Positions 27,586 to 35,991 of a DNA stretch of 64,000 nt are shown here, in pieces. Below the pieces are notes generated by a model, which was given only the letters and a program-made list of their open reading frames with translations, was not told the origin of the DNA and did not search any database. Both the position numbers and the translations under genes were made by a program. The DNA is from Henckelia pumila. Its lineage: Eukaryota; Streptophyta; Magnoliopsida; Lamiales; Gesneriaceae. Position 1 is the first letter of the stretch, and each line of letters opens with the position of its first letter. The DNA lies in the NCBI RefSeq assembly GCF_033568475.1, contig NC_133120.1, positions 93,886,151-93,950,150 of the forward strand, given 5' to 3'.

Positions 27586-27874
27586 TCACAAAAACCAAAA
27601 TGACAATATTAATTGTCTCTAAATTCTTGTGATTCTACATGCAAGTTATCAGAAATTTAAAGTTTTGTTTGGATATGGAGATTTGGATTTGAGACTTTGT
27701 TTGAGAGGATGATTTGAAATGATTTTAGGCTTAATTGTCAATCACTCCCTAAACCACTTTATAACTTATTTATAAATCCCTACATAAATAAAACTTACTT
27801 TCAACTTCCTGGAGAGAGAAATTTTTGTTTCTAAATACCAATTTTACCCTTATCTCTTAAAAAAAAATGAGAGA

Positions 27875-29918
27875 ATGGATAATAAAAACAAAACTAATCC
27901 AAATAGTATATATATAAAAATTCAAATTAAAATCAAAGAACATAAACCATATCATATACATGCTTATGTTGATACAGGAGCAAGTATGTGTTTAGGAAGC
28001 AAGCATATACTTCCAAATCATTATTGGAAGAAATATGATAAATGATTAAAAGTTCGAATAGGAGATGGATCAATAATCATGCTTAATACAGTAGCAGAAA
28101 AATTAAAAATAGAAATAGAAGAAAAAAAATTTGTAATACCCATTATATATCAAATAGAATCAGGAATGGACATTATAATAGGAAATAACTTTTTAAAAGA
28201 ATATCTTTCCTTTACACAATTTGAAGATCACATAACTTTAAACAAAGGATCATCAATGATTTACATTCCCAAAATACGAACAGCATTTCGCGTAGGAAAT
28301 GAAGGATTTACAAAGAATTTTCATAAACGAAATACAAATCCAATAGAACTAAAAATAGAAAATATTTTAACTATTAATCCTGAAAAAGAAATCATGAGGA
28401 AATTTCATGATATATGTTCTGAAAATCCTCAGGACAAAATTAAGAAAAGAAAACAATTCATTGCTTCAATAAAACTCAAAGACCCTAATATCACAATCCG
28501 TGAAACACCAAGAAGATGTAACATGGATGATGTAAAAATATTTGAAAAAGAAGTTCAAGAATTATTAAAACTTAAGATAATCATACCTAGTAAAAGTCCA
28601 CACTCTTCACCAGCCTTTTATGTCAGTAAGAAAGATACTGATAAGAAAAGAATGGTAATTGATTATCGAAAGATGAATAAAGCAACAATTATGGATGAAT
28701 ATTATATCCCAAATAAGAATGATTTACTATCTTATATAGGAGAAATGAAATATTTTTCCAGTTTAGATTGTAAATCAGGATTCTGGCAAATTCAACTAGA
28801 ACCACAAACACAATTACTTACAGCATTCAGTTGTCCAAAAGGACAGTATCAATGGACTGTATTACCTTTCGGACTTAAACAAGCACCAGGTATCTTTCAA
28901 AGATATATGGATGAATCTTTTAAATCATATATAGATTTTTGTTGTGTTTATATAGATGACATATTAATTTATTCAAAAACACTAGATCAACATTATAAAG
29001 ATCTCATGACAGTTTTAGATATTTGTTATAAAGATGGATTATACTTTCTGAAAAGAAAGCACAATTATTCAAAACAAAAATAAATCATTTAGGATTACAA
29101 ATAGAAGATGGAAAACATTATTTACAACCGCATATACTTAAGAAAATTCATGATTTTCCTAGTGAAATCAAGGATAAAGATCAATTAAGAAGATTTTTAG
29201 GATTATTAACTTATTCTGGAAATTACATTAAGAAACTTGCAGAAATCAGAAAACCTCTTCAAGTAAAATTTAAACAGGACTATAAGTGAAAATGGTCGAA
29301 AGAAGATACTAATTACATAGACACTATTAAAAAAAAATAATTAGTAATCTTCCTGAATTATATTTTCCTTCAAATAAAGATATAATAATAATTGAAACAG
29401 ACGCTTCAGATGAATACTGGGGAGTATGTTTAAAAGCTTATACTGGAGAAAGAAATTTAGAAGAACTTACTAAAACAGCTACTAGAAATAATGAAGAATT
29501 ATGCAACTATACATCAGGAACTTTTCAAGGTGCACAATTAAATTATCATTCAAATGAAAAAGAATTATTAGCTTTAATATTCACAATTAGAATTTATGAA
29601 ATTTATCTTATTTCTAAACCGTTTTTAGTAAGAACAGATAATATGAATTTAACATATTTTAAAACAAGGAAAATATCAAGAAATGCAGGGAGAAATGCAG
29701 CAAGGCTAATTAGATGGAAATTGGAATTGAACCATTATCAGTTCGAGATCCAACATGTCAAAGGAACGGATAATTCATTACCCGACGCATTAACCAGAGA
29801 ACTTCATCCAAACTATACTATCCGTAGTAACCGAATAACAAAGGAGATCCTAAGTGATCCAGAAAATGACTGTGAGTCATCCGAACATGCCTCAGAAAGC
29901 ATGAGGAATATAAATTGA
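27875..29918 (+). pseudogene. Endogenous caulimovirid Pol: protease-RT-RNase H, broken
   Basis: The reading order is that of a pararetroviral polyprotein. An aspartic protease with the motif YVDTGASMCLG comes first. Reverse transcriptase blocks follow: SSLDCKSGFWQI, FGLKQAPGIFQRYM and the active-site YIDD in CCVYIDDILIYSK. Last is RNase H, with its first acidic residue in IIETDAS, then NEKELLAL, a further Asp in VRTDN, and the C-terminal DNSLPDALTRE. There is no integrase, as expected for Caulimoviridae. Breaks: in-frame TGA at 28043-28045 between protease and RT, a frame change near 29055 after the RT core, TGA near 29287, and another frame change in an A-run near 29330. It cannot make the full protein. 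The 3' end carries one copy of a 90-bp duplication. Confidence 0.93.
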
Positions 29919-30055
29919 TGAAATGAGATTTATATTCAGAAACATGAATTATTTTATGACTTTCAGTCATCCGAACATGCCTCAGAAAGCATGGGGAATA
30001 TAAATTAATGAAATGAGATTTATATTCAGAAACATAAATTACTCTTTGAGTAAAA
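29876..30055 (+). repeat. 90-bp tandem duplication at the viral Pol/TAV junction
   Basis: Copies 29876-29965 and 29966-30055 both begin GTCATCCGAACATGCCTCAG and contain GGAATATAAATT(G/A)ATGAAAT. They differ at only a few sites by eye. The first copy overlaps the Pol stop codon; the second lies in the spacer before the TAV-like ORF. Confidence 0.9.
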
Positions 30056-30204
30056 TAATCAATTTAAGATTGATTCAATTCTTGCAAAAAAATTTATAAA
30101 TGCAATGATACGCATAATAAAACTATCCGAATTACTCACGAAAAGAGTTATTTTACTAACCATTATATATATAAATATGTTTTTTTGTGCAGAGTATAAT
30201 CAAG

Positions 30205-33695: not shown

Positions 33696-33985
33696 CGTCC
33701 TTAATAAAATTAGAAAAAGATCTAGGAGATTTAGAAAATAATATTAATAAGATCAATCTATCAATACAAGAATTAGAGAAGAATTTCAAAGAATATATTG
33801 ATTTAGCAACGACTAGATTAATAATTGAACAAGAAAGACATAGTAATGAAATATTAAACTATCTTAAGGAAGTTCTTCCAATAGATAAAGGAAAAAGAAA
33901 AATGGAAGAAGAACCACCATTCAAAATTGAATCATGGTATAGAAATCCCCTTAGTTATGGCAAACATAAGTATGGAGATGTTTAG
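33692..33985 (+). CDS. Virion-associated protein-like coiled-coil ORF (97 aa)
   Basis: This intact ORF starts MTSLIKLEKDLGDLENNINK and has clear heptads of Leu/Ile over residues 1-60, followed by a Lys-rich tail. Size, coiled coil and location between the movement and coat ORFs match caulimovirus ORF III (VAP), a tetrameric virion-surface and DNA-binding protein. Its 3' end overlaps the coat ORF start at 33957. No aphid-transmission-factor ORF lies between the movement protein and this gene. Confidence 0.6.
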   Translation: MTSLIKLEKDLGDLENNINKINLSIQELEKNFKEYIDLATTRLIIEQERHSNEILNYLKEVLPIDKGKRKMEEEPPFKIESWYRNPLSYGKHKYGDV

Positions 33986-35361
33986 TGAAACCGACTCATC
34001 TAATTTTGAACAAATAGGAGTAAATACAGAAGAATTATATCATTCACATCAGGACTCAGAACAATACAGAGATATGGATATTTCAGAATCAGAATCTGAA
34101 GATGATTCTAGACCACGACTAAATCTACGAACGAATATAGAAGGTAGTGGTGGAAGAGATGATGAAGAATTTAAATATAACAGAGACCAATACTCTGGAT
34201 CTTATAAAGATGTTAGAGATATTCTTAGAGAATCAAAAACATCAAGATTTGTGAAACAAAATATCTTAGATTTAGGTTGTTCAACAGCCAAAGAAAGAAA
34301 ATTAAAGATAGATCATTGGGCAAATGAACTATCAGTACAAATTCAATTAACACCATTATTAGACAAACGTGAGAATATTCAAGTTTTAACTTATGTGATG
34401 ATAAAAATGACACTGGTAGGAGCAGTAAGAACTTGGGCTGAAAACCTAGTAATTACTAATCTACCATAAGGAATGACAGGACATCGATATTTCGAACTAT
34501 TTGTTGATGCCTTGTACCAAGAATTTTTAGGAGTTTCTAATAATGATGCTAATTTGGTAGCTAAGAATATAGAACAAAATAGAGCAATCTTTATATTAGA
34601 TAATATTAAATTATGCAATTTATGTTACTTAGAAAAATTTATTTGTGATTATGAAACAAATTATTATCAATTAATAGATGCTGATAAAAAGAAACATTAT
34701 AAACTAAGTATCTTTAATAAGATACCTAATATACCTATACACAGTAAAGATGAATTCTTAACTAGTCCTTATGCTAAAAATTTAGGAGGAGCTATTAAAT
34801 TCATCAAAGACATAATAACAAAGAAATGTCATGAAGTAACACTAAATAAAAGAATCTCTAAATCCTACAAACAAAACAATAAATTTTGTTGTGATAAAAT
34901 AAAATTCACAGTAAAAGAATACGGTTGCAAAACAAACATATCATACAAATATTTAAAACGACAGAAACAGAATAAATTTAATAAACCTTATAAATCTTTT
35001 AATAAGAAATTTATTCTCTATAAGAAAAAGAAATTTAAAAAGAATTTCTTCAGAAAACCTTATAAAAGAAAATTTTATAAAAAGTTTGATAACAAAAAAC
35101 CACCTTGACCAAAAGGTAAAGGAAAGAATTGCACATGTTGGTTGTGCAACGAAGAAGGACATTATGCGAATGAATGTCCAAAACGAAACGAAAAAAAATA
35201 AAATTAAACTTCTTGAAGAAATATATACTATTGGATTCTATCCCGTAGAAACAATTGAATTTTCATCCGACGATGAAAATATTTATTATCTTGAGGAATC
35301 AAGTGAATCAGATTTTGAATCCGATTCTACATTTGATAATTCAAGAAATAATAATGATTAA
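33957..35361 (+). pseudogene. Endogenous caulimovirid coat protein, broken
   Basis: The main frame starts at ATG 33957. It has an acidic Ser/Glu/Asp N-terminal region, a helical core, then a very Lys/Phe/Tyr-rich basic tract. A CCHC zinc knuckle follows, CWLCNEEGHYANEC at about 35135-35180, the hallmark of retroviral and pararetroviral nucleocapsid domains. An acidic tail follows in another frame (SSDDENIYYLEESSESDFES). Breaks: TAA at 34467-34469, TGA at 35106-35108, and a frame change in the A-run near 35195-35205. The acidic ends are usual for caulimovirid capsid precursors. The ORF ends 4 nt before the inner edge of the right inverted repeat. Confidence 0.82.
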
Positions 35362-35991
35362 AATAACGACAAGGGCATTTTCGGAAAGACAAATATATGG
35401 AGTAAATTGAAAGTTATGTTTGATTTAGGGAGTTATCTACAAGTTGTCCATGATTTTATATTGGGATATATTGAAATTCATTGTAATAACTCAAAAAAAA
35501 AAACTAGTTAAAAATTGTCATTTATTAACAAATGGATTTATTCAAAATTTCAAACAACCGACAGATGTATTATTATGAATTTGAAATCCTTAATTTTAAA
35601 TGTATCAATCCAAATACAAGGTAAAGTTATTAGTTATATGATACCTAGAGTGATATGAACCAGTGTTCTAAAAGGCGGCGCCTAGGACTGCTTAGGCGGT
35701 TGTCCACCGTCTCGATTTTTAGACAACTGATGTTTTTGAGAGGTATTACATTAATTGGCCGTCTAGGCCGCCTAATCGACGCCTAGACGCCTCAAAATCC
35801 ACCTAGGCGACCGCTTAGATTAACATATAATATTTTATAATTTTTATAATTTAAATTTTTTTAAAAAGATTATTTGACATATTTGTCCCTCAATTTGTAT
35901 TGTTATAAAGCGAGAAATATGTCATGTATTTCGAGTTGAATTCGATAACGATAAATTATTGGAGAAATATTAAGATGAACAAGAATAATTA

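What the first reader, a model, noticed from the sequence alone, without database searches (positions are those of the whole stretch)
27719..35458. A genome-length pararetrovirus precisely enclosed by Mutator-like inverted repeats and a perfect 9-bp duplication
Seen: ATGATTTTA occurs directly outside two diverged inverted repeats of about 100 bp. The viral Pol ORF starts about 20 nt inside the left arm, and the coat ORF ends about 4 nt inside the right arm. The virus is present once, opened at the CP/Pol junction. Known: EPRVs lack an integrase and usually enter by end-joining without TSDs; 9-bp TSDs with long TIRs mark MULEs. Inference: either viral DNA integrated into a small MULE/MITE, or a Mutator-type unit captured a complete viral genome and moved it, which would be an unusual way to spread an EPRV. 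A single such unit cannot separate these.
Basis: partly seen in the sequence, partly recalled or inferred. Interest (0 to 1): 0.88.

Follow-up and report, generated by a model that had tools for sequence, protein, structure and literature searches.

The report
Plant pararetrovirus carrying transposon-type ends
Many copies of a plant virus genome sit in this plant's chromosomes with the same transposon-like ends and 9-base target duplications, which suggests that a virus without an integrase of its own spread by borrowing the insertion system of jumping genes.

Summary
The unit at 27728-35449 lies between two ATGATTTTA and holds a caulimovirid: Pol, movement protein, probable coat protein and primer site. 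In its own 885-Mb genome the left tip has 317 matches and the right tip 291; controls have 0. The 30 exact left tips fetched all run into viral sequence. Both ends were sought in 39 other copies and found in 22. With the window, 20 of 23 have a perfect 9-bp target duplication and 3 match at 8/9; all 23 sequences differ. The units therefore inserted as discrete elements.

Within the window's subfamily changes look neutral. Between subfamilies with the same junction, reverse transcriptase, most of the coat gene and movement protein show dS 0.13-0.36 against dN 0.026-0.064, which argues against one dead virus captured once. Best reading: a replicating caulimovirid lineage carries Mutator-like ends at its CP/Pol junction and enters chromosomes through a transposase supplied in trans. 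Against certainty: the transposase search did not complete, the arms are weakly alike, and arm and Pol relationships conflict in one copy, so recombination occurred.

The parts
27719..27727 (.). left 9-bp target-site duplication ATGATTTTA
27728..27845 (+). left terminal arm (about 118 nt; inner edge judged by eye)
   Evidence: 317 genome matches to a 26-nt tip pattern at up to 3 mismatches
27875..29918 (+). Pol region: protease, reverse transcriptase, RNase H; interrupted in this copy
   Evidence: Pfam Peptidase_A3 and RVT_1, RT_RNaseH; ATG position read by eye
29866..30045 (+). 90-nt direct tandem repeat, 92% identical
30175..31173 (+). open frames of unknown function after Pol, where other caulimovirids have a transactivator (recalled); no family above its cut-off
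   Evidence: no relatives of 30175-30759
32208..32219 (+). possible tRNA-Met primer-binding site TGGTATCAAAGC (motif recalled)
   Evidence: 3 matches in the window, 5 of 100 shuffles reach that
32724..33695 (+). movement protein region
   Evidence: Pfam MP in 32745-33272 and in 33276-33692
33885..35361 (+). probable coat protein region, frame broken in this copy
   Evidence: Pfam Caulimovir_coat_dom E 2.5e-05, 25 bits, under its 27-bit cut-off; frames
35366..35449 (+). right terminal arm (about 84 nt; inner edge judged by eye)
   Evidence: 291 genome matches to a 28-nt tip pattern at up to 3 mismatches
35450..35458 (.). right 9-bp target-site duplication ATGATTTTA

Best explanation
This is one of probably some 300 chromosomal copies of a caulimovirid lineage whose genome carries transposon-type ends between the coat and Pol genes. 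The lineage multiplied as a virus or virus-like element by reverse transcription, with Pol, coat and movement genes under selection. Its double-stranded DNA was put into chromosomes exactly at these ends, with 9-bp target duplications, by a Mutator-type transposase that the unit does not recognisably encode. Each burst left copies that then decayed neutrally. Shown: common ends, own target duplications, neutral-looking decay within subfamilies, purifying selection between subfamilies that share the junction. Inferred: that the transposase is of Mutator type and comes from elsewhere in the genome, that the substrate is the viral circle with the two ends side by side, and that the ends belonged to the replicating genome throughout.
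For: Common left tip in 28 of 28 ends read; 30 of 30 exact tips fetched are followed by viral sequence (some are the same copies as). Target duplications: 18 of 20 perfect in the first set, against 0 of 380 mismatched pairings; three further copies of older or shortened units at 9/9, 9/9 and 8/9. Of 28 left-right pairs of exact tips within 25 kb, 15 are 7.69-7.76 kb long. Within the subfamily, private changes syn/mis/stop 25/104/9 against 21.9/106.0/9.6 expected without selection. Between subfamilies: RT dS 0.134-0.349, dN 0.026-0.046 in 8 copies; coat 34473-35100 dS 0.287-0.363, dN 0.042-0.054 in 4 of 4 copies; movement protein dS 0.145-0.243, dN 0.029-0.064 in 4 of 4 copies.
Against: No transposase was identified; the PF10551 search did not complete. 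The arms and the interior disagree in L091: its left arm is nearest L081 (8 of 118 differ; 16-23 against the B copies), while its RT is nearer to B (dS 0.113-0.129) than to L081 (0.289). The coat stretch 33927-34466 of three B copies is only 3.2-3.8% from the window, with dN about dS, although the adjacent coat sequence has dS about 0.3. So lineages recombined, and ends may have moved with them. Shared changes hold more stops than expected (8 against 4.0, sd 1.7). No exact right-arm/left-arm junction with 0-8 nt between was found, though such a junction need not be chromosomal. The arms are weakly alike, more so in subfamily C.
Confidence: 0.58

Rival explanations
1. One-time capture: a Mutator-like element caught a whole viral genome once (a giant Pack-MULE) and transposase alone spread it as dead cargo.
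For: The window's subfamily alone looks like this: tree of 27 copies with short inner branches and median tip 0.0086, no fork well supported, and neutral-looking changes.
Against: Subfamilies with the same junction differ by dS 0.13-0.36 with dN far lower in three viral genes, which cargo without function would not produce.
Confidence: 0.08
2. Refreshing by recombination: resident units with these ends repeatedly exchanged their interior with an infecting relative that lacked the ends, so selection acted on the free virus and the ends were inherited by the resident copies.
For: Mosaic coat N-part in B; L091 combines an L081-like arm with a B-like RT; recombination between endogenous copies and episomal virus is discussed in PMC10377300.
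Against: The partners of both mosaics seen are themselves lineages that have the ends; A and B arms differ in the same order as their interiors. No viral copy without the ends was seen, but none was specifically searched for.
Confidence: 0.24
3. The ends are not Mutator ends: another recombinase, perhaps encoded by the unknown viral frames, cuts and joins them with a 9-bp stagger. (Not exclusive of the best explanation's other parts.)
For: Arms are alike only near the tips; no transposase found; frame 30175-30759 has no known relatives.
Against: 9-bp duplications, AT-rich targets, GGG tips and long arms fit Mutator-like elements (TSDs of 7-12 bp, long TIRs: PMC10741241).
Confidence: 0.2
4. Separate end-joining insertions of viral DNA into an existing small MULE or MITE.
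For: End joining is one of the two widely held hypotheses for endogenous caulimovirids.
Against: The same arm/virus junction in the copies read, each with its own target duplication.
Confidence: 0.01

Closest known systems
Endogenous caulimovirids (endogenous pararetroviruses), review PMC10377300 (section on integration, part 1 of 2, and passages read)
   Same: Pol with aspartic protease, RT and RNase H, movement and coat proteins, no integrase found, many copies in a plant genome
   Different: [quoted passage not shown] 'Mutator', 'MULE', 'transposase' and 'target site duplication' have 0 occurrences in it. Here the copies have fixed ends and 9-bp duplications
Mutator-like elements and Pack-MULEs (PMC10741241, one section and passages read)
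   Same: Terminal arms, 9-bp target duplications, carriage of foreign sequence
   Different: Cargo is a whole viral genome whose lineage stayed under selection; no transposase gene recognised; no copy with other cargo among the 30 exact tips fetched
Teratorn, a piggyBac-herpesvirus fusion in medaka (PMC10175614, abstract and passages)
   Same: A virus that gained transposon ends and multiplies in the host genome
   Different: Teratorn fuses a herpesvirus with piggyBac. Here the virus is a small reverse-transcribing one, the ends are Mutator-like, and no transposase gene was recognised

Membership tests
Caulimoviridae | aspartic protease + RT + RNase H Pol | tested here: met
Caulimoviridae | movement protein of the viral MP family | tested here: met
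   PF01107 E 7.5e-25
Caulimoviridae | coat protein | tested here: inconclusive
   PF22909 E 2.5e-05 but 25 bits, under the 27-bit cut-off
Caulimoviridae | no integrase domain, no LTRs | tested here: met
   no integrase family in the 16 unit frames or pieces scanned; no long direct terminal repeat among the 20 largest of 31 families
Caulimoviridae | tRNA-Met primer-binding site | tested here: inconclusive
   TGGTATCAAAGC at 32208; pattern not rare by chance
Mutator-like element | target duplications of 7-12 bp | tested here: met
   9 bp: 20 of 23 perfect, 3 of 23 at 8/9
Mutator-like element | long terminal inverted repeats | tested here: inconclusive
   about 22 nt at 82% clear; weaker further in and in subfamily C
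Mutator-like element | moved by a MURA-type transposase (PF10551) | not tested
   the genome search was sent repeatedly and never answered
Pack-MULE | ends shared with elements of other content | tested here: inconclusive
   30 of 30 exact left tips fetched carry viral sequence, but these are 30 of 317 matches and exact tips only
Teratorn-like fusion | carries its own transposase (recalled for Teratorn) | tested here: inconclusive
   no transposase family in the 16 unit frames or pieces scanned; some frames are of unknown function

The most novel reading that the evidence does not exclude
A pararetrovirus evolved a true proviral stage: its circular genome carries DNA-transposon ends, a host transposase inserts it, and perhaps also re-excises it as a circle, so that the virus passes through the germ line and can leave it again.
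Probability: 0.27. Interest if true: 0.96.

Novelty: new variant of a known kind. Interest (0 to 1): 0.9.

Why it matters
How caulimovirids without integrase reach many copies in plant genomes is an open question: PMC10377300 says that the capture mechanisms remain speculative, and PMC10175614 that the mechanism of chromosomal integration and propagation of endogenous pararetroviruses is unknown. Here the copies keep exact ends and target duplications, so the insertion reaction can be read from the sequence and tested. It would be a reverse-transcribing counterpart of the herpesvirus-transposon fusion Teratorn, and a reason to re-examine other high-copy endogenous caulimovirids for such ends.

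Tried and rejected
Rejected: independent end-joining insertions into MITEs, and dead-cargo dispersal as the whole story (see rivals). Circle junction: exact right-arm|left-arm pattern with 0-8 nt spacer, 0 matches on either strand. Relatives in viral contigs: by single sequence 31 stretches matched a pattern, none confirmed; by alignment 11, none confirmed. Proteins like the PR-RT piece: 204 hits, 120 listed; the best has 52% identity over 91% of the query, others up to 56% over shorter parts; named ones are plant 'orf y' and RT proteins. Coat piece against solved structures: none. Frame 30175-30759: no relatives. A bias of shared changes from G in Pol (41 from G, 15 from C) was not repeated in the left arm (0 from G, 11 from C) and was dropped as a clue. 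Never answered: MULE transposase PF10551, RT piece by DNA, joined-flank empty site, subfamily-C right tip. Paper some searches failed. My draft had said that arms diverge in step with the interior and had named such a conflict as a refuter. I mended both, and moved the best reading from 0.66 to 0.58, the recombination rival from 0.16 to 0.24 and the novel case from 0.30 to 0.27.
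Full report
What is in the window. The unit 27728-35449 is bounded by ATGATTTTA on both sides. Inside it are, in order, a caulimovirid Pol with protease, reverse transcriptase and RNase H, frames of unknown function, a possible primer-binding site at 32208, a movement protein and a probable coat protein (under the curated cut-off). The Pol and coat frames are broken in this copy. Pol begins about 30 nt inside the left arm, and the coat frame ends a few nt before the right arm. 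The arms of this copy resemble each other clearly over 22 nt only, and one unrelated placement of the same spacing in the window scores higher. This copy alone would leave the matter open.

The unit is a dispersed family. The left arm gave 448 first-look candidates, of which 40 were scored, at 96-100% identity. The right arm gave 423 candidates, 40 scored at 97-100%. The left 26-nt tip has 317 matches at up to 3 mismatches and the right 28-nt tip 291; the reversed controls have 0. These are matches to tips; how many are whole units was not counted. Left ends of 28 of the 40 places were read, the window's included: 28 of 28 start at the same place, two of them with a changed base among the first three. 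One search listed 100 places, all exact; the first 30 in its order were fetched, some of them copies already read. All 30 continue into viral sequence. Of these, 28 do so as far as fetched (about 1.5 kb), L078 matches for 424 nt only, and L101 jumps from the arm to window position 30132, a deletion form. From 77 of the 100 listed left places and the 100 listed right places, 28 pairs lie within 25 kb in unit order. Of the 28, 15 are 7.69-7.76 kb long, 3 are shorter, one is 9.0 kb and 9 are 14.6-18.9 kb, probably with nested insertions. One right tip is followed by a left tip 2.7 kb on.

Target-site duplications. For 20 other copies the right end was sought within 1.5 kb of the expected place and found in 11. 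For 14 copies from the right-arm list, one of them a repeat of the first set, both ends were sought and found in 8. With the window this makes 20 copies: 18 with identical 9-mers, 2 at 8 of 9. In copies 2 and 15 the right end was extended by 3-4 nt beyond the aligned part to reach the duplication. One identical pair is a TA repeat (tatatatat) and carries little weight. Of 380 mismatched pairings of left and right 9-mers none is identical and 10 agree at 8 of 9. The targets are AT-rich. In 6 more copies, chosen as older or shortened, the right end was reached in 3: 9/9 (L091), 9/9 (L101) and, read by eye, 8/9 (L089). In all, 39 other copies were sought and 22 found; with the window 20 of 23 are perfect. 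The 23 duplications are all different.

Age and selection within the subfamily. Median pairwise distance is 2.4% in 853 nt of Pol (33 copies), and 1.7-2.9% in the other stretches, both arms included. The tree of a 649-nt stretch from 27 copies has short inner branches, none well supported, with a median tip of 0.0086. At recalled plant rates of 0.5-1.5e-8 per site and year the burst would be about 0.8-2.4 million years old. This sample was chosen by likeness of the arm and so favours close copies. In 28 copies private changes were 25 synonymous, 104 missense and 9 stop, against 21.9, 106.0 and 9.6 expected without selection. Shared changes were 6, 36 and 8 against 6.5, 40.2 and 4.0. There is no sign of protein selection, and stops are if anything in excess among shared changes.

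Selection between subfamilies. Of the 30 exact-tip copies, 28 could be compared with the window over 28079-29080 (L078 and L101 could not). Twenty differ by 1.3-2.6%, with dN/dS from 0.33 to 1.47. Eight differ by 5.0-10.5%, with dS 0.134-0.349, dN 0.026-0.046 and ratios 0.13-0.28. Six of the eight (B) are close to each other, with dS 0.005-0.032 and dN 0.018-0.033; L091 (C) and L081 (D) stand apart. For three of the eight, third-position changes were compared with the pooled young copies: Fisher p 1.6e-5 (L092), 1.0e-4 (L091), 3.2e-12 (L081); the pooled counts are not independent, as all share the window as reference. Coat 34473-35100: 4 older copies dS 0.287-0.363, dN 0.042-0.054; 8 young copies dS 0.018-0.055, dN 0.017-0.029. 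Coat 33927-34466: three B copies differ by only 3.2-3.8% with no such signal, L091 by 14.6% (dS 0.342, dN 0.093). Movement protein: 4 older copies dS 0.145-0.243, dN 0.029-0.064. Neutral tip decay is included in these values, so selection on the lineages themselves was probably stronger.

The arms. Against the window, 6 young copies differ at 4-6 of 118 sites of the left arm, 7 B-type copies (L101 included) at 7-9, L091 at 23 of 118 and L081 at 18 of 114 (all were chosen by an exact tip, which lowers the values). L091 and L081 differ at only 8 of 118, yet their RT differs by dS 0.289, while L091 and B differ by 0.113-0.129. Along L091 the distance to the window drops from 0.17 in the first 150 nt to 0.05 in the next. 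So L091 joins a D-like arm to a B-like Pol: a recombinant near the arm.

How it most likely works. Ends and viral genes are found together in four subfamilies whose Pol, coat and movement genes were evidently needed between bursts. Selection on the movement protein suggests cell-to-cell spread, so a virus rather than a purely nuclear retroelement. In a circular genome the two arms would lie back to back between coat and Pol, a place where they break no gene. A transposase that recognises the tips could insert the circle with a 9-bp stagger. Whether it can also release a copy is unknown. No right-arm/left-arm junction was found in chromosomes, which neither supports nor excludes a circle. The two mosaics show recombination between lineages that all have the ends, as template switching would give, but they also leave room for a scheme in which infecting relatives without ends refreshed resident units.

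Compared with what is known. Mutator-like elements have long TIRs and 7-12 bp duplications (PMC10741241, one section and passages). The review of endogenous caulimovirids (PMC10377300; [quoted passage not shown] It has no occurrence of Mutator, MULE, transposase or target site duplication. Teratorn (PMC10175614, abstract and passages) is the nearest parallel. PMC11673190 (outline and passages) proved unrelated. Seven paper searches for pararetroviruses or caulimovirids with inverted repeats, Mutator, Pack-MULE, MULE or DNA transposon listed nothing that by title or start of abstract reports this; apart from the four papers named I saw only listings. Three further searches failed, and the library lacks most subscription papers.

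Limits. The transposase search did not complete. No relative outside this genome was available as DNA. The arm edges on the viral side are judged by eye. Only exact left tips were examined for content, so other unit types with other tips, or non-viral elements with diverged tips, may exist.

Noticed in passing
42753-45281 (-): 842-aa frame of a CACTA-type transposase (Transposase_21, DUF4218, Transpos_assoc).
   Followed up: no
53829-56330: 833-aa frame of a Copia-type Pol (RVT_2, rve).
   Followed up: no
29866-30045: 90-nt tandem duplication at the Pol 3' end of this copy.
   Followed up: no
L101 (C2:98386084): Deletion form: arm joined directly to window position 30132, Pol lost, yet with a perfect 9-bp duplication, ttatattaa.
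   Followed up: partly
L100 (C2:98366818): The right end of another unit, with a subfamily-C type arm, ends about 220 nt before this unit's left tip: two units side by side.
   Followed up: partly
33927-34466 in L110-L112 against the window: Subfamily B is nearly identical to A here while the adjacent coat sequence has dS about 0.3: a recombination mosaic.
   Followed up: partly
L091 left end: Arm nearest L081 but Pol nearest subfamily B: a recombinant close to the arm.
   Followed up: partly
27875-28727 across 33 copies: Shared changes start from G far more often than from C (41 against 15), private ones do not (53 against 61); unexplained.
   Followed up: partly
right arms of subfamily C (L109, and upstream of L100): The right tip differs from the A/B type beyond GGGCAACTTG, so further unit types may exist; the search for them did not complete.
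   Followed up: no
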